64,000 nucleotides of DNA, from the NCBI RefSeq assembly GCF_001551835.1, contig NZ_LODL01000010.1, positions 226,705 to 290,704 on the forward strand, in the 5' to 3' direction. Made by a program: the position numbers and the translations under genes. Under the pieces are notes generated by a model. That model had not been told where the DNA came from and did not search any database. It saw only the letters and a program-made list of their open reading frames with translations. The stretch is from Dechloromonas denitrificans (GTDB lineage: Bacteria > Pseudomonadota > Gammaproteobacteria > Burkholderiales > Rhodocyclaceae). Below, piece by piece: positions 11,402 through 40,993 of this stretch. Every line of letters begins with the position of its first letter. Positions within the stretch are counted from its first letter, which is position 1.

Positions 11402-11444
11402 AGCATAGGTTGAAGTGGCAGCCGACTCGGTACGCTGGCGCACA
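11402..11444 (-). promoter_or_regulatory. Crp-like dyad plus -10 for BON gene
   Basis: Read on the minus strand, the dyad TGTGCGCCAGCGTACC (11429-11444) is preceded by TA and followed, after exactly 21 bases, by CTATGCT (-10 hexamer 11402-11407). This places the dyad centre near -41.5, as in a class II Crp-type promoter. The start codon lies about 80 bases further on. The -10 fits the sigma-S form CTAYRCT. Confidence 0.65.
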
Positions 11445-11466
11445 TAGCAGCCAACCAGGCTTGCAC

Positions 11467-13986
11467 TCAAGCTGGAGGCGTACTCAGCAGCGTGCGCGTG
11501 CCGAGCAAACGGGAAAAATCCCCGGCCGGCAGCGGGTGATTGAACAGAAAGCCCTGAGCCTCATCGCACCGCTGGGTTTTCAGAAAAGCCAGTTGCTCAC
11601 TGCTTTCAACCCCCTCGGCAACGACCCGCTGCTGGAGATTTTTCCCCATGCCGATGATGGCGCTGACGATGGCTGCGTCATCCGCATTACGGGCAATGTC
11701 GCGCACGAAGGACTGGTCTATTTTCAGCGTATCGATCGGGAAGCGACTGAGATAGCTGAGGCTCGAATAACCGGTGCCAAAATCGTCGATCGCCAATTGC
11801 AGGCCCATCGCCTTGAGCTTTTCAAGGACCTGGGCCGAGGCCTCGGCCTCGTGCATCAATATGCTTTCAGTTAGTTCCAGTTCGAGATAGCGCGGCGCCA
11901 GCCCGGTCTCCTGAAGAATGCTGGCGACCCCCTCAAGAAACTTGAGGTGCCTGAACTCAAGCGCCGAAATATTGACCGAGACGGGCACGGCCTGCAGTCC
12001 GAAGTCGAGCCAGGCCTGGACTTGCCGGCAGGCTTCGTGCAGCACCCAGCGCCCGATCGGTACGATGAGGCCACACTCTTCGGCAATGGCCACGAACTGC
12101 CCGGGATGGATCAGGCCGAGCGTCGGATCCTGCCAGCGAATAAGGGCCTCGGCCCCGGTCATGATGCCCGAGGCGATATCGATTTTCGGCTGGTAGTACA
12201 ACTCGAACTCGCCATGCTTCAGGGCCCGGCGTAGATTGTTTTCGACTGACAAGCGCTGGATGGCCCGGGTGTTCATTTCGGGCGTAAAGAACTGGTAATT
12301 GTTGCGGCCCTTGGCCTTGGCGTAATACATCGCCGTGTCGGCATTCTGCATCACGGCATCGGCGGTAGAACCATCGTCCGGGTAGATGCTGATCCCTATG
12401 CTCAGGGTGATATGCAGTTCATTGCCGGCGATGCGGTGCGGCACCAGCAGTGCCGCCAGCAGTTTCTCGGCCACCTGCGCCGCATCCTGCTGCCGCTCGA
12501 TCTCGGCGAGCAGGATCACGAACTCGTCGCCGCCCTGGCGGCATACCGTGTCCGTCGTCCGAATGCATTCACCCAGACGCTTCGCTACCGACTGCAGCAA
12601 CTGGTCGCCGATGACATGGCCCAATGAGTCGTTGATGTTCTTGAAGTAATCCATGTCCAGAAAGAGCAGCGCGACCTGCTTGTGGTGCCGCTGGGCCTGT
12701 CCGATCGCCCGCGAAAAGCGTTCGGTCAGCAGCAGGCGATTGGGCAGGCCGGTCAGGAAATCATGCTGGGCCAGATGGGCCATTTTCTGCGCCATGGCCC
12801 GCGATTCGCTGACATCGTGAAAGACGATGACGGCACCGGCCACCCGACCATCCCGATTGTGGATCGGCGCCGAAGAATCCTCGATCTCAGATTCGATGCC
12901 GTCGCGCCGGATCAGTACGCTATCCGTCGCCAGCCCGACCACCCGGTTCTCTGCAATGGCGCGCTGTGCCGGATTGTCGGCAGGTTGCCGGGTCGCCCCG
13001 TCGATGATCCGGAAAACGTCGCTCAGCGGCTGGCCCAGCGCTTCTGCAAGGGACCAGCCGGTCATCGTCTCGGCCACCAGATTGAGGTAGGTCACCTTGC
13101 CGGCGATGTCGGTACACAGCACTGCATCGCCAATCGAGTTGAGCGTCACCTGAGCCCGTTCCTTTTCCTGGAACAACTCTTCCCGGGTCAGTTGCAATTC
13201 GAGATCTGCCGCCTTGCGCTCGGTTATATCCTCGACCGTCTGCACCCGACCGCGCGAACTCGGACCGTCGGGCATGGCAGCCGCATTCAGGCGGGTCCAG
13301 ACGATAGTCCCGTCTTTTCGCATAAAGCGCACTTCGGTCTGAAAAGCCTCCTGGCCGCGTACCGCATCGCGCCACTCGGCAACGATGCGCAGCCGATCGT
13401 CCGGGTGAATCGCCATGCTCCAGTTGGTGCCCAGCGTCTGTTCGAAATCGAGCCCGGAAATCTTCTGGTAGGCCGCGTTCGTATACACACAATTACCCTG
13501 CGCATCGGAGACGAAAATGCCCAGTGGCGAGGCATCGCTCATGGCGCGAAAATATTCTTCGCTGTCGCGCTGCGCATCCTGGCTCGCCTTGCGATCCAGG
13601 ATGTAGCGCAGGGCATGCGGCAACCAATGGGCGTCGACCGCACCTTTCGCCAAATAGTCGCTGGCCCCGCGTTCCACTGCCGCGCGCGCCAGGGCCTCAT
13701 CGTTGGCCCCACTCAGGACCAGAATCAGGGCGCGCGGTGCCGCCCTGGAAATCTTGTCGAACACCGCGAGCCCCTGGCCGTCGGGCAGGCTCAGATCAAG
13801 CAGAATGACATCGACGGCTGCCTTGCCCAGGCGCTCAAGTGCCGTTGCCTGCTTCCTCACCCATTCGACATGAAAAGCCCAACCGGCCGCATTGGCAAGC
13901 GCGTCCCTGATCAGCCCGGCGTCGGTTGGATCATCCTCGACCAGCAGAACACGGGTCAGAGCATTGTTCAGGTCTGGAGCGTTCAT
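11467..13986 (-). CDS. Response regulator with PAS-PAS-GGDEF-EAL
   Basis: This protein is predicted to make and/or degrade cyclic di-GMP under control of a phosphorelay. An 839-residue product runs as follows: receiver domain (residues 11-130, phospho-acceptor Asp64 in ILLDLSLPDG), PAS (about 140-255), PAS (275-395), GGDEF (405-575) and EAL (585-835). The cyclase motif GGDEF at 485-489 is intact and its inhibitory site RTTD (476-479) sits at the canonical distance. The EAL motif (EALIRW, 613) and DDFGTGYSS loop are also intact, so both activities are possible. ATG at 13986 is preferred over 13992 because GAGGGA then has normal spacing. No partner histidine kinase is adjacent. Confidence 0.92.
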   Translation of the reverse strand: MNAPDLNNALTRVLLVEDDPTDAGLIRDALANAAGWAFHVEWVRKQATALERLGKAAVDVILLDLSLPDGQGLAVFDKISRAAPRALILVLSGANDEALARAAVERGASDYLAKGAVDAHWLPHALRYILDRKASQDAQRDSEEYFRAMSDASPLGIFVSDAQGNCVYTNAAYQKISGLDFEQTLGTNWSMAIHPDDRLRIVAEWRDAVRGQEAFQTEVRFMRKDGTIVWTRLNAAAMPDGPSSRGRVQTVEDITERKAADLELQLTREELFQEKERAQVTLNSIGDAVLCTDIAGKVTYLNLVAETMTGWSLAEALGQPLSDVFRIIDGATRQPADNPAQRAIAENRVVGLATDSVLIRRDGIESEIEDSSAPIHNRDGRVAGAVIVFHDVSESRAMAQKMAHLAQHDFLTGLPNRLLLTERFSRAIGQAQRHHKQVALLFLDMDYFKNINDSLGHVIGDQLLQSVAKRLGECIRTTDTVCRQGGDEFVILLAEIERQQDAAQVAEKLLAALLVPHRIAGNELHITLSIGISIYPDDGSTADAVMQNADTAMYYAKAKGRNNYQFFTPEMNTRAIQRLSVENNLRRALKHGEFELYYQPKIDIASGIMTGAEALIRWQDPTLGLIHPGQFVAIAEECGLIVPIGRWVLHEACRQVQAWLDFGLQAVPVSVNISALEFRHLKFLEGVASILQETGLAPRYLELELTESILMHEAEASAQVLEKLKAMGLQLAIDDFGTGYSSLSYLSRFPIDTLKIDQSFVRDIARNADDAAIVSAIIGMGKNLQQRVVAEGVESSEQLAFLKTQRCDEAQGFLFNHPLPAGDFSRLLGTRTLLSTPPA

Positions 13987-14199
13987 GGGCATTCCCTCTC
14001 GCGCAGATTACCTTCCCAGCCACAGCGGAGATCGCGGCAACGGTAGCGATGGACCGGAACGAAAATACTCAGAATCAGATCGGCCACACGTCGGGAGATA
14101 CGGTTTGTCGAACCGTTGCACCGCGGACACGAGCGTCCGTGAGAGACGAGGCTGCCCCCGGGGCCGGAAAGACTTTTGCTCGGGAGATTGTTGCCTCCG

Positions 14200-14424
14200 T
14201 CAGGAAGCCCCCGGCGGACGAAAGTCCTTGTTGGAATCTTCGAAAAGCTTGATCTGCCTCTCCGCCTCATCCTTGGTGATGCCGTAGCTCTCCTGCAACT
14301 TGCCGGCGAGCTGGTCGCGCTTGCCGGCGATCACGTCGAGGTGATCATCGGTAAGCTTGCCCCACTGTGACTTGACCGTGCCCTTGAATTGCTTCCAGTT
14401 GCCTTCAACAATATCCCAGTTCAT
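14200..14424 (-). CDS. CsbD-family stress protein
   Basis: This 74-residue hydrophilic protein begins MNWDIVEGNWKQFKGTVKSQWG, a textbook CsbD/YjbJ start. CsbD-like proteins are abundant small proteins induced in stationary phase or general stress (sigma-B in Bacillus, RpoS in E. coli). Their biochemical role is unknown. AAAGGAG six bases before ATG sets the start, so a TTG two codons earlier is not used. A Crp-like dyad with a -10 lies upstream at 14563-14605. Confidence 0.93.
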   Translation of the reverse strand: MNWDIVEGNWKQFKGTVKSQWGKLTDDHLDVIAGKRDQLAGKLQESYGITKDEAERQIKLFEDSNKDFRPPGAS

Positions 14425-14562
14425 GTCCAACTCCTTTGGTCAGGACCCGGCGGGCGGAATCACCTGTCGAAGGTCCTTTTGCTCCGCCTCTTTTCGGCAC
14501 CGGTCGGCCATCAACACAGCAACTGCACGGGCCGCTTGGCTGAAAGGAGCGATGCAAGTACA

Positions 14563-14605
14563 AAGTTAGACGCATTCCCGGATCAGGTCGGTGTGCTCCC
14601 ATACA
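14563..14605 (-). promoter_or_regulatory. Weak Crp-like dyad plus -10 for CsbD gene
   Basis: The minus-strand dyad TGTATGGGAGCACACC (14590-14605, preceded by TA) is the weakest of the set. However, a CTAACTT -10-like element begins at the same 21-base spacing as at the stronger promoters, which is why it is kept. The start codon is about 140 bases downstream. Confidence 0.4.
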
Positions 14606-14635
14606 TAGGGAAATATCAGGCGCCGAACGTTGGTA

Positions 14636-14669
14636 ATGATTGAAGGGCCGAACGGCGGGCTTCAATCAT
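14636..14669 (-). terminator. Hairpin at end of DUF883 gene
   Basis: A perfect 10-base inverted repeat (ATGATTGAAG / CTTCAATCAT) encloses a 14-base loop that itself contains GCCGTTCGGC. It overlaps the DUF883 stop codon. No T-run follows on either strand, so it may be a Rho-assisted or processing hairpin rather than a true intrinsic terminator. Confidence 0.4.
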
Positions 14670-15006
14670 CAGCCGCTCGGCGCCGGCTGAGCATGGCGCC
14701 GATGACGGCGCCAGCCGCAGCCGCAACCCCCAGCACTTTCCAGGGATTGTTCCGGACATACTCGTCAGTCGCATCGGCGGAGCAGCGGGCCTTGGCGGTC
14801 AGCGCCGCGCTCGCATCCAGCAGCCGCGTCTTGGTCTGCGCCAGACGGGCTTCGAGCTTCGTTCGGGCCGTAAGTAATTCGTCGGTAGTGGCGGCAGCGA
14901 CGTTACCGATCAACGCATTCGCATCGCCGACAACATTTTTGAGATCCTTGACCAAGGCTTGCTTGCTGCCTTCGACGGTCCCTTGATTGGTGTTTTCAGT
15001 AGTCAT
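14662..15006 (-). CDS. DUF883 (ElaB/YqjD-like) membrane-anchored protein
   Basis: This 114-residue protein has a long amphipathic helical body (about residues 5-80) and a C-terminal membrane anchor (NPWKVLGVAAAAGAVIGAML) followed by RRR. This is the arrangement of ElaB/YqjD, inner-membrane proteins that bind stationary-phase ribosomes and are RpoS-dependent in E. coli. AAGGAG is followed by ATGATG. The second ATG has the better spacing and is used here; the first would add one Met. The role in ribosome or membrane protection is inferred from the family. Confidence 0.88.
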   Translation of the reverse strand: MTTENTNQGTVEGSKQALVKDLKNVVGDANALIGNVAAATTDELLTARTKLEARLAQTKTRLLDASAALTAKARCSADATDEYVRNNPWKVLGVAAAAGAVIGAMLSRRRAADD

Positions 15007-15111
15007 CATCTCTCCTTCTCATTGCGTTGCGGGGCAATTCCGTAGGCGAGGCTACGTTTGACTCGGCGCTCTCCCCTTGGCGCATCCTCCTCCTGGTTGT
15101 CGGGCGATGTC

Positions 15112-15153
15112 GGTGTGCTGGCGCACAGACGTCAGCTCCACCCCGAGTAGTCT
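15112..15153 (+). promoter_or_regulatory. Crp-like dyad between divergent DUF883 and DUF3309 genes
   Basis: GGTGTGCTGGCGCACA (15112-15127); on the minus strand it reads TGTGCGCCAGCACACC, preceded by TC. On the plus side a TAGTCT hexamer begins 20 bases after it, aiming at the DUF3309/DUF1328 pair. No good -10 is found on the minus side at that spacing. Confidence 0.5.
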
Positions 15154-15232
15154 TGAAGACAAGCGACAGAAGCGCCTGTCCGGACTTCTCTCGGGCGCCG
15201 AGTGGCTACTAATAGAAACAAGGAGAGATCAA

Positions 15233-15391
15233 ATGTCCTTAGGAACAATCCTGCTGATCATCGTGATTCTGATGCTGATCGGCGCATTTCCCAGCTGGCC
15301 CCACAGCCGTGGCTGGGGTTACGGCCCCAGTGGCGGTCTTGGGCTGGTGCTGGTCATCCTGCTCATTCTGTTCTTGCTGGGCAAGATTTGA
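15233..15391 (+). CDS. DUF3309 small membrane protein
   Basis: The 52-residue protein has two hydrophobic helices (residues 4-20 and 36-50) joined by a short loop with the family motif [18 protein letters not shown]3309 proteins are tiny inner-membrane proteins of unknown function, common in proteobacteria. The start is fixed by AAGGAGAGATCAA before ATG. It is followed after 82 bases by another tiny membrane protein and is probably co-transcribed with it from the dyad-containing promoter. Confidence 0.85.
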
Positions 15392-15473
15392 AGTTTCAAC
15401 CCGGTTTTGGCAGTTGACCGGCGCTTTGCCCAAAGAGCCTGACACCGCCTCCCCGGGAAAGAAAGGAAATACC

Positions 15474-15638
15474 ATGTTGCACTACGCCGTTGTATTTTTT
15501 GTTGTTGCGCTGATCGCCGCACTCTTCGGCTTTACCGGCATTGCGGCCGGTGCGGTCGAAATTGCCAAGATTCTGTTTTTCGTCTTCATCCTGCTCTTCA
15601 TCGGCTCTCTCGTCATGGGCTTGATGCGCGGCAAGTAA
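15474..15638 (+). CDS. DUF1328 (YtjA-like) small membrane protein
   Basis: The 54-residue protein consists of two membrane helices with the family signature [25 protein letters not shown] and a basic C-terminus (MRGK). YtjA-type proteins are stress-induced inner-membrane proteins without a known activity. GAAAGGAAATACC precedes ATG. The gene converges with phosphoketolase, whose stop is 22 bases away. Confidence 0.88.
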
Positions 15639-15659
15639 GCACCAGCCGGGAGTTCTGCT

Positions 15660-18029
15660 TCATTCCCGGGCCTCCGGCCATTGCCAGTTGCGGATTTCCG
15701 GCATGTCTTCGCCGTGCTCGTGGATGTATTGCGTGTGCCGGTTGAGCATGTCGCGCATTTGTTGCTTGATGTGGGCCGCCTGCGACTGCAGTTTCGGCAC
15801 CTGATTGGCGACATCCATCACCAGATTGAAGCGGTCGAGGTGATTCAGCACGACCATGTCGAACGGCGTCGTCGTCGTTCCCTCTTCCTTATAGCCGCGC
15901 ACGTGCAGATGGGCGTGATTGCTGCGCCGGTAGGTCAGGCGGTGAATCAGCCAGGGGTAGCCGTGATAGGCGAAGAGGATGGGCGTGTCGGCGCGGAACA
16001 GCGAAATGAATTCGGTATCGGACAGACCGTGCGGGTGCTCCTCCTGCGGCTGCAGGGTCATCAGGTCGACGACGTTGATGAAACGGATTTTCAGCGCCGG
16101 CACAATCTGGCGCAGGATGTCGATGGCGGCCAGCATTTCCAGCGTCGGCACATCGCCGGCCGCGGCCAGCACGATGTCCGGCTCGCCGGACTGGTCGCTG
16201 CAGGCCCATTCCCACATGCCGATGCCGGCACTGGCATGGTTGATCGCGGCAGGCATGTCCAGCCATTGCCGCTCCAGTTGCTTGCCGGCGACGATGACAT
16301 TGACCAGGTTCCTGCTTTTCAGGCATTCGTCGGTGACGTAGAGCAGCGTATTGGCATCCGGCGGCAAATAGACGCGGATGATGTCGGCCTTCTTGTTCAC
16401 GACATGGTCGATGAAGCCCGGGTCCTGGTGCGAGAAGCCGTTGTGGTCCTGGCGCCAGACGTGGGAAGTGAGCAGGATGTTCAACGAGGCAATCGGCCGC
16501 CGCCAGGGAATCTCGCTGCAGACTTTCAGCCACTTGGCGTGCTGGTTGAACATCGAGTCGATGATGTGGATGAAGGCCTCGTAGCACGAGAACAACCCGT
16601 GCCGACCGGTCAGTAGATAGCCTTCGAGCCAGCCTTCGCAGGCATGTTCGGAAAGGATTTCCATGACCCGGCCATCGACGCCCAGATGATCGTCATCGGC
16701 CAGCCGCTCGGCCATCCAGCGCCGGTCGGTTGCCTCGAACAAGGCGCCGAGGCGGTTGGAGGCGGTTTCATCGGGCCCGAAGACGCGGAAGTTGTGCGGG
16801 TTCCGGTGCATCACATCGCGCAGGAATTCGCCCATCGCGCGCGTCGATTCTGCCCTCACGCCGCCCGGCGTCGGGACCGGCACCGCGTAGTCGCGAAAAT
16901 CCGGCAGGCGCAGGTCGTGCAGCAAGACTCCGCCGTTGGCATGCGGATTGGCCCCCATCCGCCGTTCGCCGGTCGGTGCCAGGGCCGCCAGTTCCGGCCG
17001 CAGCCGGCCCTCGGCATCGAACAGTTCGCGCGGCAAGTAGGACAGCATCCAGTCTTCGAGCAGGCGGAGGTGTTCCGGCTTCTCCATGTCGCTGAACGGC
17101 ACCTGATGCGAGCGCCAGTAGCCTTCGCTCTTCTTGCCATCGACTTCCTTCGGTCCGGTCCACCCTTTGGGCGAGCGCAAGATGATCATCGGCCAGCGCG
17201 GGCGCTGCACTTCCCCGCCGGCACGGGCCTGGCGCTGAATGTCCGAAATTTGGTCCATGGCGTGGTCGACCGCAGCAGCCATCAACTGATGCATGCTTGC
17301 CGGGTCTTCGCCCTCGACGAAATACGGTTTGTAGCCGTAGCCGACGAACAGGCATTCAAGTTCGCTATGGCTGATCCGGGCGAGTACCGTCGGATTGGCA
17401 ATCTTGTAGCCGTTGAGATGCAGGATCGGCAGCACCGCGCCATCGGTGCGCGGATTCAGGAACTTGTTGGAATGCCAGGATGCGGCCAGCGGCCCGGTCT
17501 CCGCTTCGCCATCGCCGACGACGCAGCAGGCGACCAGATCGGGATTGTCGAATACCGCGCCATAGGCATGGAACAGGGCGTAACCCAGCTCGCCGCCTTC
17601 ATGGATCGAGCCCGGCGTTTCCGGCGCCGCGTGGCTCGGAATGCCGCCCGGGAAGGAAAACTGGCGGAACAGCCGGCGCATGCCCTCTTCATCTTGCGAG
17701 ATGTCGGAATACAGCTCGCTGTAGCTGCCTTCGAGCCAGGTATTCGCCACCACGGCCGGCCCGCCGTGGCCGGGACCGGCAATGTAGATCATGCTCAGGT
17801 CGCGCTGGCGAATCAGCCGGTTCATATGCACGTAGATGAAGTTCAGGCCGGGCGTCGTGCCCCAGTGGCCGAGCAGGCGCGGCTTGATGTGCGCCAGTTG
17901 CAGCGGCTGCCTGAGGAGCGGATTGTCGAGCAGGTAGATCTGCCCCACCGACAGGTAATTGGCGGCCCGCCAGTAGGCATCCATCCGCTGCAGTTCGTCG
18001 ACCGCCAGCACCGCTTCAATTGAGGACAA
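15660..18029 (-). CDS. xfp: Phosphoketolase (Xfp family)
   Basis: This thiamine-diphosphate enzyme cleaves xylulose 5-phosphate (and usually fructose 6-phosphate) with phosphate to acetyl phosphate plus glyceraldehyde 3-phosphate (or erythrose 4-phosphate). The 789-residue length and the motifs [25 protein letters not shown] (near 173, cofactor binding), YKIANPT and SHQDPGF are typical. The start codon is TTG with AAGGAG six bases upstream; the next Met is 15 codons later. The gene lies downstream of cbpA-cbpM and 6 kb from the zwf-pgl-gnd genes that feed its substrate pool. This suggests a carbon bypass to acetyl phosphate during stress. Confidence 0.95.
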
Positions 18030-18121
18030 TTGCTTCTCCTTGAACGATCAAAGTGAAAATCCGCCGCAATGCTGACCAGACGCCCCGCCCGGCCCCGTGC
18101 CGAGAAGCGGCGCCAATGCCG

Positions 18122-18442
18122 CTACTCGCCGCCCATTATGCGCAGCCTGGCCCGTAGCTCATCAACTTCCTCCAGCAATTGCAGGGCCAGCGCCGCACCG
18201 GCCAGATTGATGCCGAGGTCGCGCTGCAAGTGCAAGGCAACGCGGGTTCGGTAGAGGTGTGCGCCGCTGAAGCGCCAGCGATGCGGCTCGCGGCCCTGCG
18301 GCGCGAGCACGCCTTCATCGACCAGTTCAACGATGAACTCGGCCCGCACCGAACAGGCACGGCACAGTTCGGCCAGCGTCAGGTTGCTCTGTTCATCGAG
18401 AATGAGCGCGCTCGGCAGCGGCAGGTTCTTTTCGTTCGCCAT
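18122..18442 (-). CDS. cbpM: CbpM-like modulator of DnaJ-type chaperone
   Basis: This 106-residue MerR-like helical protein (TLAELCRACSVRAEFIVELVDEGVL, then a long C-terminal helix) sits two bases downstream of cbpA. CbpM proteins bind the J-domain of CbpA and block both its DNA binding and its co-chaperone activity. Position, size and the winged-helix-like N-terminus support the call. The two genes are clearly one transcript. Confidence 0.88.
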   Translation of the reverse strand: MANEKNLPLPSALILDEQSNLTLAELCRACSVRAEFIVELVDEGVLAPQGREPHRWRFSGAHLYRTRVALHLQRDLGINLAGAALALQLLEEVDELRARLRIMGGE

Positions 18443-18444
18443 TC

Positions 18445-19398
18445 TCAGACTCCCAGTTTGGCACGTGGCCGGAAGCTCTTGAACTGCTCGGCCATGCTGC
18501 CGTAGAAGGCTTTTTCAGCATCCGCCGCGGCGGCCGGCAAGTCGATCCGGATCACCGCATAGAAATCGCCCGGCGTATTTCCGGGAATGCCACGGCCCTT
18601 CAGTCGAAGCTTGCCGCCACTCGCCGAACCCGGCGGGATCTTCAGTTCGACCGTGCCACCCGGCGTCGGCGCCTTGATTGTGGCGCCCAGGGCGGCCTCC
18701 CACGGGGCGAGCGGCAGGTCGAGATAGATATCGCGACCGTCGACCCGATAGAGGGCATGCGGATGAAAGCCGATTTCCAGATAGAGGTCGCCGGGCTTGC
18801 CCTGCCCGATACCCGGCGCGCCCTGGCCGCTCAGGCGGATATGCTGGCCGGCGCGAATGCCGATCGGGATGGTCACATTGAGCGTGTGGGCCGCCATCGA
18901 CACGCGTCCCTGGCTATCGATTTTCGGCGTTTGCAGCGTGATGCTGCGGGTGGTGCCACGGTAGGCATCTTCCAGGTCGATCAGCACCTTGGCGTGACGA
19001 TCCTCGCCCCGGGCATGAAAATCTGCCTGCTGCCGTCCGCCGCTCCTGAAGTGGCGGCCATAGAGGGCTTCAAAAAAGTCGCTGAACTCGCCGGAGCCGC
19101 CATCGCCCGCCCCGGCCCCGTCACCGGCATACTCGAAACCGGCGTTCCAGTCCGGCGGCGGCCGGAAGTCCTGCCCGGCTTTCCAGTCCTTGCCCAACTG
19201 ATCGTAGGCGGCGCGCTTTTCCAGATCCTTCAGTACCGCATAGGCCTCGCCGAGTTCCTTGAAGCGCACCTCGGCATCCGCTGCCTTGCTGACATCCGGA
19301 TGATATTTGCGGGCCAACTGGCGATAGGCGCGCTTGATTTCGTCCTGGCTGGCATCACGCGCCAGGCCCATGATCTTGTAATAGTCCTTGAATTCCAT
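18445..19398 (-). CDS. cbpA: Curved DNA-binding protein CbpA (DnaJ homolog)
   Basis: CbpA is a DnaJ-like co-chaperone and nucleoid protein of stationary phase. The 317-residue product has a J-domain at residues 5-70 with the HPD tripeptide (YHPDVS). A Gly-rich linker follows, then two DnaJ C-terminal beta domains, with no zinc-finger CxxCxGxG repeats, which separates it from DnaJ. It is followed at once by cbpM. A PRC-barrel gene precedes it by 45 bases on the same strand, so the PRC promoter with its Crp-like dyad could also serve cbpA-cbpM. Confidence 0.94.
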   Translation of the reverse strand: MEFKDYYKIMGLARDASQDEIKRAYRQLARKYHPDVSKAADAEVRFKELGEAYAVLKDLEKRAAYDQLGKDWKAGQDFRPPPDWNAGFEYAGDGAGAGDGGSGEFSDFFEALYGRHFRSGGRQQADFHARGEDRHAKVLIDLEDAYRGTTRSITLQTPKIDSQGRVSMAAHTLNVTIPIGIRAGQHIRLSGQGAPGIGQGKPGDLYLEIGFHPHALYRVDGRDIYLDLPLAPWEAALGATIKAPTPGGTVELKIPPGSASGGKLRLKGRGIPGNTPGDFYAVIRIDLPAAAADAEKAFYGSMAEQFKSFRPRAKLGV

Positions 19399-19443
19399 TT
19401 AAGACCTGCCCGCAGTTTTTTGTTCAGACGGCGCTTCTCTGGT

Positions 19444-19887
19444 TCAGAGGCTGGCCGGTGGGCGACTGGGCGTCGTTCCGTAGTAGGCGTGAATGCCGGC
19501 TTCCCACTTGGCATCGGCCATGTCGGGCCACTTGTTCTTGTCGAAGCCGGGGGCGTGCTCAAGCCGCTCCTTGTTCACATCAAGCTCGAAGCGCTTGTTG
19601 GTCGTATCCAGGGTCAACGCCTCCCACGGCACCGCGAACAATTTCTCGCCAAAGCCCATGAACCCGCCGAAGGACAGCACGGCATAGCTGACCCGCCCGG
19701 TCCGCATGTCGATCATGATTTCCTTGATGTCGCCGATATCCTCGGCCGCCTTGTTGAATACGTCATTGCCGATGAGCGTCTCGGCGCCCATCAAATGCGG
19801 ACCCGGACCATGGCTGGTATCGGGGCCGGAGGGTGTGCCTGTTTTTACCTTGTAGATGCCGTAGGAATCGCGCTCTTCGTAGTTCAT
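19444..19887 (-). CDS. PRC-barrel domain protein
   Basis: This 147-residue cytoplasmic protein has a PRC-barrel (HLMGAETLIGNDVFN, DIKEIMIDMRTGRVSYAVLSFGGFMGFGEKLFAVPW) between about residues 34 and 105. PRC barrels bind RNA or proteins, as in RimM, and single-domain versions are frequent in stress regions. ATG at 19887 with TTGGAG six bases upstream is better than the ATG four codons earlier. The gene lies first in a probable PRC-cbpA-cbpM unit. Its molecular role is unknown. Confidence 0.88.
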   Translation of the reverse strand: MNYEERDSYGIYKVKTGTPSGPDTSHGPGPHLMGAETLIGNDVFNKAAEDIGDIKEIMIDMRTGRVSYAVLSFGGFMGFGEKLFAVPWEALTLDTTNKRFELDVNKERLEHAPGFDKNKWPDMADAKWEAGIHAYYGTTPSRPPASL

Positions 19888-19957
19888 GTCTATCTCCAAT
19901 AAAAGATGGCAGGGAAATGTCGATGCAACATGCCACGCAGCGATACCCTGTCCTTAA

Positions 19958-20000
19958 AGCCTAGAGAACAGCATTCGCATCGTCTGTTCGACAGAGCACA
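19958..20000 (-). promoter_or_regulatory. Crp-like dyad plus -10 for PRC-barrel/cbpA unit
   Basis: TGTTCGACAGAGCACA (19985-20000, plus strand) is a near-perfect dyad (TGTTC-N6-GCACA). On the minus strand CTAGGCT (-10 hexamer 19958-19963) begins exactly 21 bases beyond it. The start codon is about 70 bases downstream. Confidence 0.6.
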
Positions 20001-20016
20001 CAAGCCCGGTAACGAC

Positions 20017-21024: not shown

Positions 21025-21085
21025 GCCCGCTCCGCCCATGTTGCCCGGCTGCTCAGCAGCCCGCCGGTCGTCGGCCACCTGGATT

Positions 21086-21301
21086 TCATCGGTCTTTGGG
21101 CCGACAGAGATCGGCCTTGAGCGGAATCGTGCTGGCGGATTCGGCGACAGACTCCGGCTTGGCGGACAAAGCGAAGGAATTTTCCGGATGTTCCTGACCG
21201 GCAGCAATCACTGGACGCTGGATCGGCGTCCAGCAGGTGCAGCCAATCTCGGTTGCTCGATGGAGAGCCGGCTTGCGGCTAGATGTTTCGTCGTTTTTCA
21301 T
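21086..21301 (-). CDS. Small hypothetical protein (71 aa)
   Basis: The product is a hydrophilic 71-residue protein of unknown family with one CTC motif (EIGCTCWTPIQRP). ATG is preceded by GGGAGGA, the main argument that it is real. It lies 61 bases upstream of the PHB-depolymerase-like gene on the same strand, and divergent from the CHRD gene across an intergenic region with two Crp-like dyads. It could equally be a chance open frame. Confidence 0.4.
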   Translation of the reverse strand: MKNDETSSRKPALHRATEIGCTCWTPIQRPVIAAGQEHPENSFALSAKPESVAESASTIPLKADLCRPKDR

Positions 21302-28356: not shown

Positions 28357-30885
28357 ATGCCACAGCAGTCGACGCAAAGTCCGAAGCAGAACCGTATTCT
28401 GGCGGCCCTCACCCCCAATGACTATGCGCGCCTGCAGGATGATCTCGAATGCGTTTCGATGAAACTCGGGCAGGTTCTCTTCGAATCCGGCGACAACGTT
28501 GCCTACGCCTATTTCCCGACGACCTGCATCGTTTCGCTGATGTTCACCACCCAAAAGGGGGCCTCAGCCGAACTGGCGATTACCGGCAACGATGGACTGG
28601 TCGGCATCCCGCTGGTCCTGGGGGGCAACACCACGACCCACCGGGCGGTCATCCAGAGCGACGGCATCGCTTACCGCCTGAAGATGGAGATCATGCGCTG
28701 GGAACTGGACCAGGGCGGCGAACTGCAGCACCTCTGCCTGCGCTACGCCCAGGCCTTGATGACGCAGATGGCGCAAAGCGTGGTCTGCAACCGCCATCAT
28801 TCTGTGGACCAGCAGCTCTGCCGCTGGCTGCTGCTCAGCCTCGACCGTCTGCCCGGCAATCAACTGAACATGACCCAGGAACTGATTGGTAACATGCTGG
28901 GGGTCAGGCGCGAGGCGGTCACCGAAGCCGCCGGGAAACTGCAGGCCGCCGGCCTGATCCAGTACAGCCGCGGACATATCAGCATCCTCGACCGAGCTGG
29001 CCTGGAGGAGCGGGTCTGCGAATGCTATGCCGTGGCCAAGTCGGAATACGACCGCCTTTTTCAGTTTCCGGCCGCCATTCGCGTCAAAAACCGGGTCCGC
29101 CCCAACCCGGAGACGCTGCGCAAACGTGCCGAAGCGCGCTTGCAGCAATCCGCCCCAGACATCCTGAAAACGCCATGGGACAACACGCGACTGGTGCATG
29201 AACTGCAGGTTCATCAGATCGAACTTGAAATGCACAACGAGGAACTCCGTCTGGCCTATAACGAGGCCGACGCCCTGATCGAGCGTTACGCCGACATCTA
29301 CGACTTCGCCCCGGTCAGTTACTTCACGCTTGACCGGCAAGGCGTCATCATCGACATGAACCTGGCCGGGTCGATCCTGCTCGCCATCAAAAGCTCGCAG
29401 AAAGGCCGCTATCGCTTTGCCTCGCGCATCGCTCCCGAGTATCTGGTCGATTTCAATGCATTCTTCGAGCAAGTCTTCCGGGCAAAAGACAAGACCGCCG
29501 GCGAGTTCGTGCTGTCGGCCAACGATCATCGCCCCGAGGCAATCGTCAAAATCGAAGCCGTCCCCGATGAAAACGGAGATGAGTGCCGGATGGTCGTCAT
29601 CGATGTTTCGCCGGCCCGGCAAGCCCAAAAAGCCCTGCAGGAGCGCGAGCAATACCTGCGCGCTGTCATCGACAACTTTCCCTTCATCGTCTGGCTGAAA
29701 GATGCGCAAAGCAGCTTTCTTGCGGTGAACGCCCCTTTTTCGGCAAATTTCGGCTGGCCCTCGGCCGATGCCCTGATCGGCAAGACGGATTTCGACATCA
29801 CCAGCCGGGAACTCGCCGAATTTTATCGGACGGAAGATCGCGCCGTCCTCGAATCCGGCCAGACGAAAACCCTGGTGGAACAGATCGAAACGATCAATGG
29901 GCAACGCTGGTTCGAAGTCTATAAATCGCCGATCCATCTTGAAGGCCAACCGATCGGTACGGTCGGCTTTGCTCGCGACATTACGGAGCGCTACGCCGCC
30001 GAGCAAGCGCTGAAGAACTCCGAGAAGCGATACCGGAGCCTGATCGAGAAGATGCCGCTTAGCGTCGCCATTCTTCAGGATGGCGTCCTGAAGTACATCA
30101 ATTCCAGGGGGCTGGAACTGATCGGCGATCCGGCCGGCGCCTGCGTCGGCCAATCCTTCCTGCCCCTGATCCATGAAGCCGACCGTCAATGGGTCACCGA
30201 CACCCACAAGGTTCACTCACTCGGGGAACTGGAAAACAGCAGCGCCGAGCTCAGGTTGGTGAACATGGCGGGGCGGATCATCGACTGCCTCGTTCATGTC
30301 AGCAGCGTCGAATGGGAGGGGCGCGTCGCGGTCCTCGCGATCCTCGAGGACATCTCCGCCAAGAAACTGATCGATGCTGAACTGCACCGTCTGGCCAGCA
30401 TCGACCCGCTGACCGAACTGGCCAGCCGGCAGCATTTCCTCGACCACGTGGAACAAGCCTTCTCCCGGCTGAAACGGGGCATCGACCGTGAGGTGGTCGT
30501 CCTGCGGCTGGACCTCGATCAGTTCCAGACGACCACCGAGAGCCTCGGTGGTCTGGCCGGCGATGCCCTGCTCCGCCTGTTCTCGGCCCTGCTCCGCGAC
30601 GAATTGCGCAAGGTCGATTTTGCCGGCCGCATCGACAGCGAAAAATTCGCCGTCCTGCTGCCGGAGACCAACCTGTTCGCCGCCAAGGTATTTGCCGAGC
30701 GCTTGCGGGAGAAGGTCGCCAGCACGACGATCATCATCGCCGGCCAGCCGGTATCGACCACGATCAGCATCGGCCTGGCCACGATGAACGGGGACGACGC
30801 ATCGGCCGATGACGTCCTGCTCCGCGCGGAACAAGCGCTGACCCACGCTCACCAAGCCGGCGGCAATCGGACAGCCCCGGCCTGA
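28357..30885 (+). CDS. Crp/Fnr-type regulator fused to PAS domains and degenerate GGDEF
   Basis: The 842-residue protein starts as a Crp/Fnr regulator: cNMP-binding-like beta roll (15-130), then a Crp-type winged helix (about 150-212). Its recognition helix LGVRREAVTE keeps the Arg185-Glu186 pair (E. coli Crp R180-E181) but has Glu190 where Crp has R185. Three PAS domains follow (about 305-420, 433-545, 553-668). The C-terminal GGDEF fold (672-835) reads DSEKF (760-764) in place of GGDEF, so it should not make c-di-GMP. The inhibitory-site motif RKVD (751-754) stands exactly five residues before it. GAGAGGAA sets the start at 28357; the frame opens 22 codons earlier. Predicted role: ligand-sensing activator of the surrounding dyad-bearing promoters (inference). 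Confidence 0.85.
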   Translation: MPQQSTQSPKQNRILAALTPNDYARLQDDLECVSMKLGQVLFESGDNVAYAYFPTTCIVSLMFTTQKGASAELAITGNDGLVGIPLVLGGNTTTHRAVIQSDGIAYRLKMEIMRWELDQGGELQHLCLRYAQALMTQMAQSVVCNRHHSVDQQLCRWLLLSLDRLPGNQLNMTQELIGNMLGVRREAVTEAAGKLQAAGLIQYSRGHISILDRAGLEERVCECYAVAKSEYDRLFQFPAAIRVKNRVRPNPETLRKRAEARLQQSAPDILKTPWDNTRLVHELQVHQIELEMHNEELRLAYNEADALIERYADIYDFAPVSYFTLDRQGVIIDMNLAGSILLAIKSSQKGRYRFASRIAPEYLVDFNAFFEQVFRAKDKTAGEFVLSANDHRPEAIVKIEAVPDENGDECRMVVIDVSPARQAQKALQEREQYLRAVIDNFPFIVWLKDAQSSFLAVNAPFSANFGWPSADALIGKTDFDITSRELAEFYRTEDRAVLESGQTKTLVEQIETINGQRWFEVYKSPIHLEGQPIGTVGFARDITERYAAEQALKNSEKRYRSLIEKMPLSVAILQDGVLKYINSRGLELIGDPAGACVGQSFLPLIHEADRQWVTDTHKVHSLGELENSSAELRLVNMAGRIIDCLVHVSSVEWEGRVAVLAILEDISAKKLIDAELHRLASIDPLTELASRQHFLDHVEQAFSRLKRGIDREVVVLRLDLDQFQTTTESLGGLAGDALLRLFSALLRDELRKVDFAGRIDSEKFAVLLPETNLFAAKVFAERLREKVASTTIIIAGQPVSTTISIGLATMNGDDASADDVLLRAEQALTHAHQAGGNRTAPA

Positions 30886-30924
30886 GCGGCAAGACGACGG
30901 CATTCGGTTCAAGAAATTGCGCTC

Positions 30925-30967
30925 TGTGCGCTACCAGACCGAAACAGACATTGAGCGTAGGCATGAT
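30925..30967 (+). promoter_or_regulatory. Crp-like dyad plus -10 with no protein gene behind it
   Basis: TGTGCGCTACCAGACC (30925-30940, preceded by TC) has CATGAT (30962-30967) beginning exactly 21 bases later, so a transcript would start near 30973. No open frame with a ribosome-binding site follows before an intrinsic terminator at 31052. Confidence 0.5.
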
Positions 30968-32555: not shown

Positions 32556-32855
32556 TCAGCGTGCCGGCGCAGCAGGAACGACGACTACCGTATCGCCCCC
32601 CGTCTTGCCTGGCTCGCCCTGGGCCCCGGTCCCGCCAGCCGCTCCAGTTGCCCCGGTATCACCGGTCGAGCCGGTTGCCCCCGTGGAGCCGGTCTGCCCG
32701 CTTGATCCGGTGGCCCCAGCCGGCCCGGCCGGGCCGGGAACTGGAACTTGAACGGGAACGTTGACCACCGTCGGTGTCACGACCTTGGGTTGCTTTTCGC
32801 ATGCGCCCAAGCCCAAGGCGAGCAGCAGCGCTGAAAAAATCGTTAAGTATTTCAT
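32556..32855 (-). CDS. Collagen-like lipoprotein
   Basis: This 99-residue protein has a lipoprotein signal (lipobox LGLGAC, Cys19) and a Val/Pro-rich stalk. An uninterrupted run of about 14 Gly-X-Y triplets follows (GPAGPAGATGSSGQTGSTG ... GEPGKTGGD) before a hydrophobic VVVVPAAPAR tail. Gly-X-Y repeats can form a collagen triple helix, so a trimeric surface or periplasmic rod anchored by lipid is plausible. Thr dominates the Y position in place of hydroxyproline. Collagen-like lipoproteins are unusual in Gram-negative chromosomes outside prophage tail genes; no phage genes are near. A Crp-like promoter lies upstream. Confidence 0.88.
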   Translation of the reverse strand: MKYLTIFSALLLALGLGACEKQPKVVTPTVVNVPVQVPVPGPAGPAGATGSSGQTGSTGATGSTGDTGATGAAGGTGAQGEPGKTGGDTVVVVPAAPAR

Positions 32856-32919: not shown

Positions 32920-32962
32920 ACAGTACGCCCACGTTCGGCAGGCCTCCGTTCGCTGACACACA
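32920..32962 (-). promoter_or_regulatory. Crp-like dyad plus -10 for collagen-like gene
   Basis: The minus-strand dyad TGTGTGTCAGCGAACG (32947-32962, preceded by TC) is followed 21 bases later by TACTGT (32920-32925). The start codon is 65 bases beyond. Confidence 0.5.
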
Positions 32963-33023
32963 CAGAAGTGACAAATGCGGTGGATTACCGATAACTGCAA
33001 TTGAGTCGCGAAAAAACGCGCTA

Positions 33024-36788: not shown

Positions 36789-36873
36789 GTCTTCAGGAAC
36801 GCCCCTCCCGTTTTCTCATGTTTTGCAGCCCGGGCGCGTCGAGTTCCCCTTTGTAATTCTGGAGATCAAAAAA

Positions 36874-37437
36874 ATGAACAACACACCAAGCATCTTGCAA
36901 AAATTCATCCTCATTACCGCTACGGCCTTCGCATTGACCACCATCAGCAACGTGACGTTTGCCGCCAGCGCCGAAGACCTCAACAAGGACGCGGCCCAGG
37001 CGCTGCAAATACTCTACAAGAGCAGCCCGGTTGCCGAGAGTCTTTCCAAGAAAGCCAAGGCAATCCTCGTTTTTCCGAAGATTCTCAAGGCTGGACTGGT
37101 CTTCGGTGGCGCCTACGGTGAAGGCGTTCTGAGCAAGCATGACAAATTCGTGAGCTACTACAACTCGGTTACCGCCACTTTCGGCTGGCAGGCCGGAGCT
37201 GAGTCGTATGGCTACGTAGTATTCCTGATGAGCGACAAGGCCGTGAAATACCTTGATGACTCCATGGGATGGGAAATCGGCGTCGGCCCGACGGTGGTCG
37301 TGGTCAATGAAGGGATAGCCAAGAATCTCTCGACATCGACTTTGAAGAACGATGCCTACGCCTTCATTTTCGACCAGCAGGGACTGATGGCCAGCCTCAG
37401 CATCGAGGGCACGAAAATCAGCCGTATCAAACGCTAG
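36874..37437 (+). CDS. SYLF-domain (Ysc84-like) lipid-binding exported protein
   Basis: This 187-residue exported protein has a signal peptide cleaved around TFAAS (residue 31) and a SYLF/Ysc84 domain that binds phosphoinositides in eukaryotes and lipids in bacteria. Characteristic stretches are AKAILVFPKILKAGLVFGGAYGEGVL, TFGWQAGAESYGYVVFLMSDKAV and WEIGVGPTVVVV. CTGGAG lies before ATG, and the longer frame is not supported. A strong terminator follows 33 bases after the stop, so it is monocistronic. Confidence 0.93.
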   Translation: MNNTPSILQKFILITATAFALTTISNVTFAASAEDLNKDAAQALQILYKSSPVAESLSKKAKAILVFPKILKAGLVFGGAYGEGVLSKHDKFVSYYNSVTATFGWQAGAESYGYVVFLMSDKAVKYLDDSMGWEIGVGPTVVVVNEGIAKNLSTSTLKNDAYAFIFDQQGLMASLSIEGTKISRIKR

Positions 37438-39222: not shown

Positions 39223-39834
39223 CTACTTCTGGTAAGTGACTTTTGCCTTGTCGAGGCAGCTATCCTTGGCCGAACCGGAATACGTATCGCACTTTTCCTT
39301 GGCAACCGCATACTCGGCATCGCTCTTGTCGGCAGAGGCATCCTTGCGGGCATCGCTGGTTTTCTTGCTGGCATCGCCGCGCGCATCAGCCGTCTTTTCA
39401 TTGGCTGTTGCGTTGGCTTCAGCGGTCTTCATCTGCGCCTTGGCATCGGCTTTTGCGGCAGTTTCCGCGGCCTTTGCTTCCTTTACGCAGACATCCTTGG
39501 GGTTGCCGGCAAGATCGTCGCATTTCTCCTTGGCCACGCCATAGTCCGCCTCGGCCTTGGCCACGCGTGCTTCGTAGCGTGACTTCTGGGTCGGCTTGTA
39601 GGCGGCCTCAAGGTCAGCTTTGGCGACTTTCTCTTTGCCCTTTGCTTCAGCCATGCAGACATCATTGGCATTGCCCGACAGAGAATTGCAGTGCGCCTTG
39701 GCCGTCTTGTACTCGGCTGAAATTTTGTCCTTGCCGGCATTGAAATCGCCTTTCGACATGCCTTCAGCCATGGCGCTGGCACTTAAAGCGAGGGTGATGG
39801 CAAGTGCGATCGTGTTGGTGGTGAGATTTTTCAT
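39223..39834 (-). CDS. Exported protein with three Cys-pair repeats
   Basis: This 203-residue exported protein has a signal peptide ending SAMA-EG. It contains three copies of a repeat of about 35 residues: Y-x-x-A-K-x-x-C followed about 12 residues later by a second Cys (AHCNSLSGNANDVCMAEAK, EKCDDLAGNPKDVCVKEAK, EKCDTYSGSAKDSCLDKAK). A charged Ala/Lys helix separates repeats two and three (about residues 120-165). Each repeat could form one disulfide-closed helical hairpin. AAGGACC precedes ATG at 39834. A Crp-like dyad lies 174 bases upstream. Function unknown. Confidence 0.8.
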   Translation of the reverse strand: MKNLTTNTIALAITLALSASAMAEGMSKGDFNAGKDKISAEYKTAKAHCNSLSGNANDVCMAEAKGKEKVAKADLEAAYKPTQKSRYEARVAKAEADYGVAKEKCDDLAGNPKDVCVKEAKAAETAAKADAKAQMKTAEANATANEKTADARGDASKKTSDARKDASADKSDAEYAVAKEKCDTYSGSAKDSCLDKAKVTYQK

Positions 39835-40023: not shown

Positions 40024-40086
40024 TAAGCAGAGATTTGCCTGCTGAATGGCGCAATTGATGCCTGCCTCAGGCCAAAGGCAGAAAGC

Positions 40087-40776
40087 TCAGGCAGTCACGC
40101 CGAACAAGGCACCGACGCCAGCCGTCAAGGCCATCGCCAAGGCGCCCCAAAAGCTGACGCGGGCGATCGCGACGATCAGGGGTGCGCCGCCGGCGGCAGC
40201 CGACAAGGCGCCGAGCAGGGCAAGAAAAAGCAACGCGCTGCCGGCGACACTCCAGAACAGCACAGTCGCCGGCACCAACAGGACAACCAGCAGCGGCAGC
40301 ACCGCCCCCATTGAAAAGGTGGCGGCCGAGGTCAACGCGGCCTGCAGGGGTTTGGCCGTCTGACAGGCCGAGATACCCAGCTCGTCCCGGGCATGCGTCC
40401 CGATGGCGTCATGGGCCATCAATTGGCTGGCCACCACATCCGCAATTTCTGAGTCCAGCCCGCGCCCGATGTATATGGCTCGCAGTTCCGCCTGCTCGTG
40501 TTCCGGATCGGCCGCCAATTCACGCCGTTCACGATCCAGATCGGCTTTTTCCGTATCAGCCTGCGAACTCACGGAAACATACTCGCCGGCGGCCATCGAA
40601 CTTGCGCCAGCCATCAGGCCCGCGACGCCGGCAATCAGGATGGTGCTCGAATCCGCCCCGGCTGCAGCAACGCCCAGAACCAGACTGGCCGTCGAGACTA
40701 TCCCGTCATTTGCCCCGAGCACTGCGGCGCGCAGCCAGCCGATCCGTTCTGTCCGGTGTTTCTCTGTGTGTCGCAT
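40087..40776 (-). CDS. VIT1/CCC1-family membrane transporter
   Basis: This 229-residue protein belongs to the vacuolar iron transporter family, which moves Fe(II)/Mn(II) across membranes. It has the family N-terminus HTEKHRTERIGWLRAAVLGANDGIVSTASLVLGVAAAG. MAAGEYVSVSSQADTEKADL follows, then the acidic cytoplasmic metal-binding helical segment and three C-terminal membrane helices. ATG at 40776 (MRHTEK) with AGGA upstream is preferred over the frame start 14 codons earlier. It faces the CheB-CheR gene across 270 bases. Metal export from the cytoplasm under stress is a plausible role. Confidence 0.9.
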   Translation of the reverse strand: MRHTEKHRTERIGWLRAAVLGANDGIVSTASLVLGVAAAGADSSTILIAGVAGLMAGASSMAAGEYVSVSSQADTEKADLDRERRELAADPEHEQAELRAIYIGRGLDSEIADVVASQLMAHDAIGTHARDELGISACQTAKPLQAALTSAATFSMGAVLPLLVVLLVPATVLFWSVAGSALLFLALLGALSAAAGGAPLIVAIARVSFWGALAMALTAGVGALFGVTA

Positions 40777-40951
40777 GAATATCCTGACTCCAAAGGTAGT
40801 TGGATTCCGCTCCCGCAATCTCAGAACTGGAACAAGGCCAGCCCCCCCTCAATACTGGTCTGCCAATGGCGATAGTCAAGGAGCATCTCGCCATCGCCGC
40901 TGCATGCTTGTCAGCAACGGCGCCAGCCGCTGCCCAACTGTGATGCAGGTC

Positions 40952-40993
40952 TGTGTGTCATCGCACACAGGCTTTGCCTGGCGGCGATTTATT
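40952..40993 (+). promoter_or_regulatory. Crp-like dyad plus -10 facing CheB-CheR-PAS gene
   Basis: TGTGTGTCATCGCACA (40952-40967, preceded by TC, followed by CAG) is a 10-of-12 dyad. On the plus side TTTATT begins 20 bases later, pointing at the CheB-CheR gene. No hexamer is found at that spacing on the transporter side. Confidence 0.5.

What the first reader, a model, noticed from the sequence alone, without database searches (positions are those of the whole stretch)
11402..40993. Fifteen copies of a new Crp-like dyad mark a stress/envelope regulon
Seen: 16-mers related to TGTGCG-N4-CGCACA, equivalent to TGTGC-N6-GCACA, occur at 11429, 14590, 15112, 19985, 21434, 21469, 28191, 28248, 28325, 30925, 32947, 33024, 36746, 40008 and 40952. 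All lie in intergenic DNA, and 14 of 15 have T-A/C before one arm. Known: Crp/Fnr proteins bind TGTGA-N6-TCACA-type sites with this geometry. Inference: one Crp-family factor controls BON, CsbD, DUF883/DUF3309, PRC-cbpA-cbpM, CHRD (perhaps gapN-gnd-zwf-pgl), glycine-zipper, collagen-like, Mla-like, SYLF and CheB-CheR genes. I do not recognise this motif as a described regulon. Intragenic background copies were not counted.
Basis: partly seen in the sequence, partly recalled or inferred. Interest (0 to 1): 0.95.

Follow-up and report, generated by a model that had tools for sequence, protein, structure and literature searches.

The report
Stress-gene island with shared activator switch
Fourteen copies of one DNA switch, most of them placed where a Crp-type activator would sit on a promoter, link a cluster of stress and cell-envelope genes, a regulator gene and an unannotated small RNA; the arrangement recurs in many related bacteria, and no description of it was found in the papers that could be searched.

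Summary
A matrix trained only on other genomes finds exactly those 14 in the window at >=12 bits, all intergenic; 200 column-permuted matrices average 0.17. Core: T(A/C)TGTnCG-N4-CGnACA(G/T)A. In relatives an xAxxxT hexamer sits at one fixed distance, putting the dyad centre at -41.5, the class II activator position: 137 of 167 and 116 of 143 intergenic sites, against about 4% per direction at other offsets. The likely activator is the 28357-30885 protein: a Crp/Fnr module fused to PAS domains and a GGDEF-like domain without its signature. Orthologues and dyad co-occur: 41 of 47 family genomes with, 2 of 103 without. In 340 kb read elsewhere on this contig no intergenic site reaches 12 bits. 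The 30925 site drives an unannotated, covariation-supported small RNA (30974-31052) with a C-rich loop. A model of the transcript alone finds it in other genomes; all 14 matches with E <= 7e-6 (7 of them not in the training set) have the dyad exactly 41.5 nt upstream. Binding, sign, ligand and RNA targets are untested.

The parts
11427..11446 (-). dyad for BON lipoprotein gene 11005-11319(-); -10 TATGCT at +29
   Evidence: 24.9 bits with relatives-only matrix; -10; BON Pfam hit
14588..14607 (-). dyad for CsbD gene 14200-14424(-); -10 TAACTT
   Evidence: 15.6 bits
15110..15129 (.). dyad between DUF883 gene (14662-15009, -) and DUF3309/DUF1328 genes (15233-15638, +); no xAxxxT at +29 in either direction
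   Evidence: 24.0 bits
19983..20002 (-). dyad for PRC-cbpA-cbpM genes (19887 down to 18122), perhaps also phosphoketolase 15660-18011; -10 TAGGCT
   Evidence: 19.4 bits
21432..21451 (-). dyad facing minus strand: 71-aa ORF 21086-21301 with GGAGG upstream, then PHB-esterase-like gene ending at 20017; -10 CATCTT
   Evidence: 26.5 bits
21467..21486 (+). dyad for CHRD gene 21612-22034, possibly running on to ALDH-gnd-zwf-pgl (to 27603); -10 CAATTT
   Evidence: 24.2 bits
28189..28208 (-). dyad for 175-aa protein gene 27593-28120(-); -10 TAGCCT
   Evidence: 20.4 bits
28246..28265 (+). autoregulatory dyad of the regulator gene; -10 TATGCT
   Evidence: 13.4 bits; an upstream site in 32 of 47 members of the regulator protein cluster in 40 family loci
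28357..30885 (+). regulator: cNMP-binding-like domain, HTH_Crp_2, PAS domains, GGDEF-like domain with DSEKF in place of GGDEF
30923..30942 (+). dyad of the small RNA promoter; -10 CATGAT
   Evidence: 20.4 bits
30974..31052 (+). small RNA, about 79 nt: 5' hairpin with C-rich loop, intrinsic terminator with T7 tail; predicted +1 at 30974
   Evidence: no Rfam match at gathering threshold
32945..32964 (-). dyad for collagen-like gene 32556-32855(-); -10 TACTGT
   Evidence: 19.6 bits
33022..33041 (+). dyad for Mla-like transporter genes up to 36735; -10 TAAATC (partial)
   Evidence: 23.5 bits
36744..36763 (+). dyad for SYLF/Ysc84 gene 36823-37437; -10 TAGGCT
   Evidence: 25.9 bits
40006..40025 (-). 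dyad for 203-aa protein gene 39223-39834(-); -10 CAAGCT
   Evidence: 18.9 bits; upstream site in 8 of 8 homologues
40950..40969 (.). dyad between VIT1-family gene (40087-40776, -) and CheB-CheR-PAS gene (40996-43698, +); no xAxxxT at +29
   Evidence: 22.2 bits
   Evidence: 3.7 bits; no -10 at +29

Best explanation
The dyads are binding sites of a Crp/Fnr-family activator subfamily whose member here is the 28357-30885 protein. Bound as a dimer at T(A/C)TGTnCG-N4-CGnACA(G/T)A centred on -41.5, it would recruit sigma-70 RNA polymerase as a class II activator, replacing the -35 contact. It would thereby switch on, as one unit, its own gene, about a dozen stress and envelope transcripts of the island, and a small RNA encoded right behind it. 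The small RNA's C-rich (often CCUCC) loop would then base-pair with Shine-Dalgarno-like G-rich stretches and change translation of target mRNAs. Shown by sequence: the motif, its conservation, the fixed -10 spacing, co-occurrence with the regulator, the RNA's conserved structure and its fixed distance from the dyad. Inferred: that this protein binds these sites, that the effect is activation, and the RNA's mode of action. Unknown: the signal, perhaps sensed by the cNMP-like fold and/or the PAS/GGDEF-like C-terminus.
For: Out-of-sample matrix recovers 14 sites, 14 of 14 intergenic (permutation control). Fixed -10: xAxxxT at offset 29 from the centre in 151 of 334 site-directions (mean at other offsets 12.5) in 40 family loci and 125 of 286 (mean 11.9) in named loci L130-L187. 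In at least one direction it is present at 137 of 167, 116 of 143 and, in the window, 10 of 13 intergenic sites >=14 bits, or 11 of 14 counting 28248. Where only one flanking gene starts nearby, it is found toward the gene at 58 of 78 and 61 of 88 sites, away from it at 13 and 15. Regulator and strict 20-mer co-occur: family 41 of 47 against 2 of 103, order 50 of 76 against 12 of 174. Site upstream of 32 of 47 members of the regulator cluster. Recognition helix GVRRE(G/A)VTEAAGKLQ nearly fixed among close orthologues. Small RNA: 12 of 19 pairs with two-sided changes, 99.5% of cells paired, slid controls 32-47%. 14 of 14 model matches with E <= 7e-6, and 15 of 22 at E <= 1e-3, have a dyad (>=12 bits) exactly 41.5 nt upstream of the 5' end; 8 of those 15 were not in the training set.
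Against: No binding or expression data. 26 of 76 regulator-bearing order genomes and 6 of 47 family genomes have no exact strict match; 12 and 2 genomes have one without an orthologue at E <= 1e-30. The pattern is strict: only one of the window's 14 sites matches it exactly. The looser TGTNCG-N4-CGNACA has 11 exact matches in this genome (2 for the reversed control), of which only 21434 is in the window, so it does not mark the island. G546 (own genus) keeps 15 dyads in 38 kb and the RNA but has no regulator on the 660 kb of that contig I read. No regulator was seen in the 55 kb read of G498 or the 12.8 kb read of G488, which also have RNA matches. Window sites 15112, 33024 and 40952 lack xAxxxT at +29. 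A second Crp clade (about 40% identity, helix GVRRVGVTKAA) often lies beside the first in relatives and might share sites. Counts are not corrected for phylogeny.
Confidence: 0.81

Rival explanations
1. The dyads are bound by another Crp/Fnr paralogue of the genome, and 28357-30885 is only a target.
For: One search finds 13 HTH_Crp_2 matches in the genome, 12 over the cut-off. G546 keeps dyads without the neighbouring regulator. Two of 103 family genomes and 12 of 174 order genomes without an orthologue have an exact site.
Against: Presence of the orthologue predicts the motif across 150 family genomes, and 3 of 3 same-genus genomes in that draw (G062, G112, G147) lack both. The window genome has only one protein of this subfamily at E <= 1e-30. 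The site is most often upstream of this gene family.
Confidence: 0.14
2. The factor represses: the dyads are operators overlapping promoters, not activator sites.
For: A dyad over the -35 region could also block polymerase, and autoregulation can be negative. Geometry alone does not prove the sign.
Against: The single exact spacing to the -10 (151 of 334 at one offset, next best 29) is what activator-polymerase contact would demand. A consensus scan of 14000-31100 finds no excess of full sigma-70 promoters (2 found, 4.4 expected).
Confidence: 0.08
3. The repeats are a mobile or structural element (REP/MITE-like, terminator or chromosome-organisation sequence) rather than an operator.
For: Short palindromes concentrated in one island.
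Against: Flanks of the window copies look unlike each other (not formally tested). They sit at fixed distance from -10 boxes that mostly point to genes. The matrix has Crp spacing. The 30925 site is followed by its own terminator-ended RNA.
Confidence: 0.01
4. The 30974-31052 element is only the transcription terminator of the regulator gene or an attenuator, not a small RNA.
For: It lies directly behind the regulator gene in the window and L130-L133.
Against: It has its own dyad and -10 at exact distance. In L068, L070, L062 and L050 the element is not directly behind a regulator gene. Its first hairpin covaries.
Confidence: 0.07

Closest known systems
Crp (CAP) and Fnr of Enterobacteria, class II promoters
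   Same: Crp-type HTH, dyad with N6 between five-base arms, centre at -41.5 (their geometry recalled)
   Different: Arms TGTnC/GnACA with G at the next position instead of TGTGA or TTGAT (recalled); sensory domains after the HTH; sites concentrated in one island
GsrN, the sigma-T/EcfG-dependent stress RNA of Caulobacter (PMC5869019, passages read)
   Same: Small RNA with an exposed C-rich 5' loop and terminator hairpin, controlled by the stress regulator; homologues typically lie near the regulator genes
   Different: Here the activator would be a Crp-family protein and the host is a betaproteobacterium; no sequence relation was tested, and targets are unknown
FnrS, Spot 42, CyaR (recalled): Fnr- or Crp-dependent small RNAs
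   Same: A Crp/Fnr-family protein controls a trans-acting RNA together with mRNAs
   Different: Different regulator subfamily, site and RNA; here the RNA is often next to the regulator gene
c-di-GMP-responsive Crp-family proteins (Clp, Bcam1349; recalled)
   Same: Crp-family regulator with a possible c-di-GMP link
   Different: There the ligand binds the Crp-type protein itself; here a GGDEF-like domain is fused C-terminally and in this genome lacks the signature

Membership tests
Crp/Fnr superfamily of transcription factors | Crp-type winged HTH | tested here: met
   PF13545 1.3e-15, residues 152-218
Crp/Fnr superfamily of transcription factors | N-terminal cNMP-binding-type beta-roll | tested here: met
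   Weak: PF00027 at 27.4 bits against a 27.5 cut-off in the protein scan; 31.2 bits, over cut-off, in the genome scan. No structure model obtained
Crp/Fnr superfamily of transcription factors | Dyad with 6-base spacer | tested here: met
   TGTnC-N6-GnACA matrix (palindromy was imposed when it was built, but the oriented column counts show both arms)
Crp/Fnr superfamily of transcription factors | Protein binds the dyad as a dimer | not testable with these tools
   No binding assay
Crp/Fnr class II activator promoters | Site centred at -41.5 | tested here: met
   xAxxxT at offset 29; RNA model 5' end at 41.5 from the centre
Crp (CAP) regulon proper | TGTGA-N6-TCACA sites | tested here: not met
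   Position 5 is C in 83% and A in 0% of arms in the matrix
Crp (CAP) regulon proper | cAMP binding and activation | not testable with these tools
   No ligand assay
GGDEF diguanylate cyclase | GG(D/E)EF active-site motif | tested here: not met
   DSEKF in window and L130, EGEQF in L132; GGDEF intact in L134, L141, L077, GGEEF in L062
GsrN-type stress small RNAs | C-rich loop plus terminator, under the control of the stress regulator | tested here: inconclusive
   Structure and loop met and dyad control supported; that the regulon is a stress regulon is inferred from gene content only. Works like, not shown to be a homologue
GsrN-type stress small RNAs | Transcribed by sigma-EcfG | not tested
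   Promoter here carries a Crp-type dyad and a -10 box; no sigma-EcfG search was made
Known Rfam families | Match above gathering score | tested here: not met
   0 matches in window 10000-45000

The most novel reading that the evidence does not exclude
Many Rhodocyclaceae and other Burkholderiales, and some gammaproteobacteria, carry a portable 'stress island': a Crp-family activator, in some lineages fused to PAS and GGDEF modules, with its own operator code TGTnCG-N4-CGnACA, which switches on CsbD, BON, DUF883, DUF3309, glycine-zipper, CHRD, Mla-like and sugar-phosphate genes together with, in part of them, a dyad-driven anti-Shine-Dalgarno small RNA. It would be a counterpart, without a dedicated sigma factor, of the SigB or EcfG/GsrN general stress responses.
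Probability: 0.45. Interest if true: 0.85.

Novelty: new variant of a known kind. Interest (0 to 1): 0.74.

Why it matters
CsbD, BON, DUF883, DUF3309, DUF1328, PRC and CHRD genes are widespread stress-like genes whose regulation outside SigB-type systems is, to my knowledge, mostly unknown. A defined operator, candidate activator and small RNA make their control directly testable in culturable Dechloromonas, Zoogloea and Thauera strains, and give a motif that can annotate the same regulon in dozens of genera. The regulator also offers natural pairs with an intact or a lost GGDEF signature behind a Crp DNA-binding module.

Tried and rejected
28325 as a site: rejected (3.7 bits, no -10). The coarse TGTGC-N6-GCACA pattern over the whole window shows no excess. 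The loose pattern TGTNCGNNNNCGNACA separates family genomes with and without the regulator only weakly (mean 9.1 against 4.8; reversed-pattern control 3.8 against 2.5), so the stricter 20-mer was used. Mobile-element reading: no tRNA in the window and no sharp composition break (4-kb GC 0.56-0.66); not pursued further. The 7 of 22 matches without a dyad at 41.5 (all with E > 1e-4), and those without one, are treated as other terminator-type hairpins. Sequence search of solved structures gave one distant match, 3dv8. Structure prediction was asked for three times and the queue was full. Papers: nine searches listed nothing on this motif, regulator or RNA; the word form Crp/Fnr with a slash cannot be searched and only open-licence PMC papers are held, so absence from print is not proven. 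PMC6446978 (Accumulibacter FNR motif, passages read) concerns an FNR-type motif; its TGTGCG is part of a primer. After the first attempt to file I added to test island confinement in the window's own genome.
Full report
OBSERVATION. With at most two mismatches to TGTGCG-N4-CGCACA the window has 11 sites, 11 of 11 intergenic and all in 11-41 kb; shuffled intergenic DNA gives 0.35 on average, at most 3 in 500 shuffles. In the whole genome TGTGCGNTNNCGCACA at <=2 mismatches has 52 distinct places (61 strand rows), 11 of them inside this 30-kb stretch. With the refined 20-mer, 7 of the 8 places with 0-1 mismatch and 5 of the 25 with exactly 2 lie in the island.

OUT-OF-SAMPLE TEST. I fetched 40 loci (11-20 kb) around relatives of the regulator in other genomes of the family. 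There TGTnCG-N4-CGnACA occurs 39 times in intergenic and 4 times in coding DNA, although intergenic DNA is 15.5% of bases (the base totals include the window). Two hundred symmetric column permutations of the matrix give on average 0.17 intergenic hits.

CONFINEMENT. In 340 kb of the same contig outside the window, 4 sites reach 12 bits, all in called coding DNA and none with a -10. Of three further 20-kb stretches picked because the mismatch lists pointed there, one holds a coding hit (C35:31239) and one an intergenic site with a -10 (C35:680394, 20.8 bits, target unclear). The rest of the genome was not scanned with the matrix. In G546, 15 of 17 sites >=14 bits on 660 kb lie within 38 kb. 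So the regulon is concentrated in the island, with at least one possible outlier.

GEOMETRY. Sites oriented toward the nearest gene show an A (80%) and a T (78%) at fixed columns, the second and sixth base of a -10 box whose first base lies 29 bases from the dyad centre. Over deduplicated intergenic sites >=14 bits, xAxxxT at this offset is found in 151 of 334 directions in family loci (mean at other offsets 12.5, next best 29 at offset 30) and in 125 of 286 in the named loci L130-L187 (mean 11.9). Sites called coding show it too (13 of 14 and 15 of 19), so many of those are probably misplaced gene starts. This places the centre at -41.5, the class II position of Crp and Fnr. In the window 11 of 14 sites have it, in the direction of a plausible target. 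The exceptions are 15112, 33024 (TAAATC) and 40952.

REGULATOR. The 28357-30885 product has a weak cNMP-binding-type domain, a clear HTH_Crp_2 domain, PAS domains and a GGDEF-like domain whose signature reads DSEKF. Full-length relatives include L130 (Dechloromonas hortensis, 93% identity), L131 (Azonexus sp. MAG), L132 and L133. Others end at 420-460 residues or, at about 240, right after the HTH; L134, L141, L077 (GGDEF) and L062 (GGEEF) keep the signature. The recognition helix is nearly fixed. Orthologues of residues 1-234 (E <= 1e-30) occur in 47 of 150 family genomes and 76 of 250 order genomes. An exact strict 20-mer occurs in 43 and 62. Overlap is 41 and 50; Fisher p 7e-28 and 5e-22 without correction for phylogeny. 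In the genus, searches with the full-length protein hit 17 of 60 genomes, though at most 16 candidates per genome were scored, so the module looks patchy. Of 58 named loci, 56 longer than 5 kb were scanned: 51 have at least one intergenic site >=14 bits; L160, L162, L173, L184 and L185 have none (L184 and L185 match only the C-terminal domains). They include Pseudomonas, Halomonas-type, Marinobacter and Rheinheimera loci.

TARGETS. Among 40 family loci plus the window, homologues with a site >=12 bits within 350 bp upstream: regulator cluster 32 of 47 (paralogues included), BON 10 of 15, DUF883 8 of 10, the 203-aa protein 8 of 8, CsbD 7 of 15, DUF3309 6 of 9, a large protein family that looks like a sensor kinase (label recalled, not searched) 6 of 12. 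The 21434 site faces a 71-aa ORF (21086-21301, minus strand, GGAGG upstream), also present in L130.

SMALL RNA. The 30925 site stands in a convergent gap without a called gene. Behind its -10 lies a 79-nt element with a 5' hairpin, a C-rich loop and a terminator ending in T7, conserved in L130-L133 (folding z-scores -1.8 to -5.6, weakest for the window copy). A covariance model of the transcript alone (no promoter) recovered ten members, with 99.5% of pair cells standard and 12 of 19 pairs changed on both sides; sliding the partners by 1-3 columns drops pairing to 32-47% (the alignment was fitted to the model, which favours it). A second model searched against 346 family genomes gave 22 matches at E <= 1e-3 in 21 genomes, so most family genomes show no match. 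The 14 with E <= 7e-6 all have a dyad (>=12 bits) exactly 41.5 nt upstream of the first base, as does 1 of the 8 weaker ones; 8 of these 15 were not used in training, two of them from one genome and two from one genus. The model holds no promoter bases, so this supports the promoter geometry and the RNA at once. The loop often contains CCUCC, the complement of a Shine-Dalgarno core (read; in the window it is ACCCCCUUG). Rfam has no match. In logic it resembles GsrN of Caulobacter (PMC5869019, passages read).

RESULTS AGAINST. G546 of the same genus keeps the island with 15 dyads in 38 kb and the RNA, but no regulator gene on the 660 kb read; in the window order the regulator would lie between the 175-aa gene and the RNA. 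In G399 and G547 relatives of the regulator were found further along the same contig and in G572 on another contig near its other RNA copy; in G498 and G488 none was seen in the 55 and 12.8 kb read. G001 and G007 have exact sites but no orthologue at 1e-30. The looser motif has 11 exact copies in this genome, only one in the window. Whether gapN-gnd-zwf-pgl and phosphoketolase are co-transcribed with dyad-driven genes was not settled.

VERDICT.

Noticed in passing
L231 9206-10000 (G546): The stress island is kept with its dyads and small RNA, but the regulator gene is missing between the 175-aa gene and the RNA.
   Followed up: partly
window 29000-30885; L132, L134, L141, L077, L062: GGDEF-like domain fused behind a Crp HTH: signature intact in some lineages, degenerate in the window, L130 and L132.
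   Followed up: partly
L070 7895-8602, L057 8675-9382, L051 10267-10977 and others: A second Crp clade (about 40% identity, helix GVRRVGVTKAA) often lies beside the first; its sites and role are unknown.
   Followed up: no
L296 10394-10413 (G000:C35:680394): One intergenic dyad outside the island (20.8 bits, TAATTT at +29 on the minus strand) without a gene called downstream in that direction within 2.5 kb.
   Followed up: partly
L166 9511 and 9750, L168 9756: Dyad promoters followed by terminator-ended stretches of 112-131 nt without a known product; possibly further small RNAs of the regulon in other bacteria.
   Followed up: no
L194, L193, L205: RNAs of similar anatomy (hairpin with a pyrimidine-rich loop plus terminator) without the dyad, found by the RNA model at weak E-values.
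   Followed up: no
window 15660-18011: Phosphoketolase gene downstream of cbpM on the same strand, possibly part of the PRC-cbpA-cbpM transcript.
   Followed up: no
window 55892-63941: Minus-strand gene block that looks, from recall of the protein starts only, like a type VI secretion cluster; not searched.
   Followed up: no
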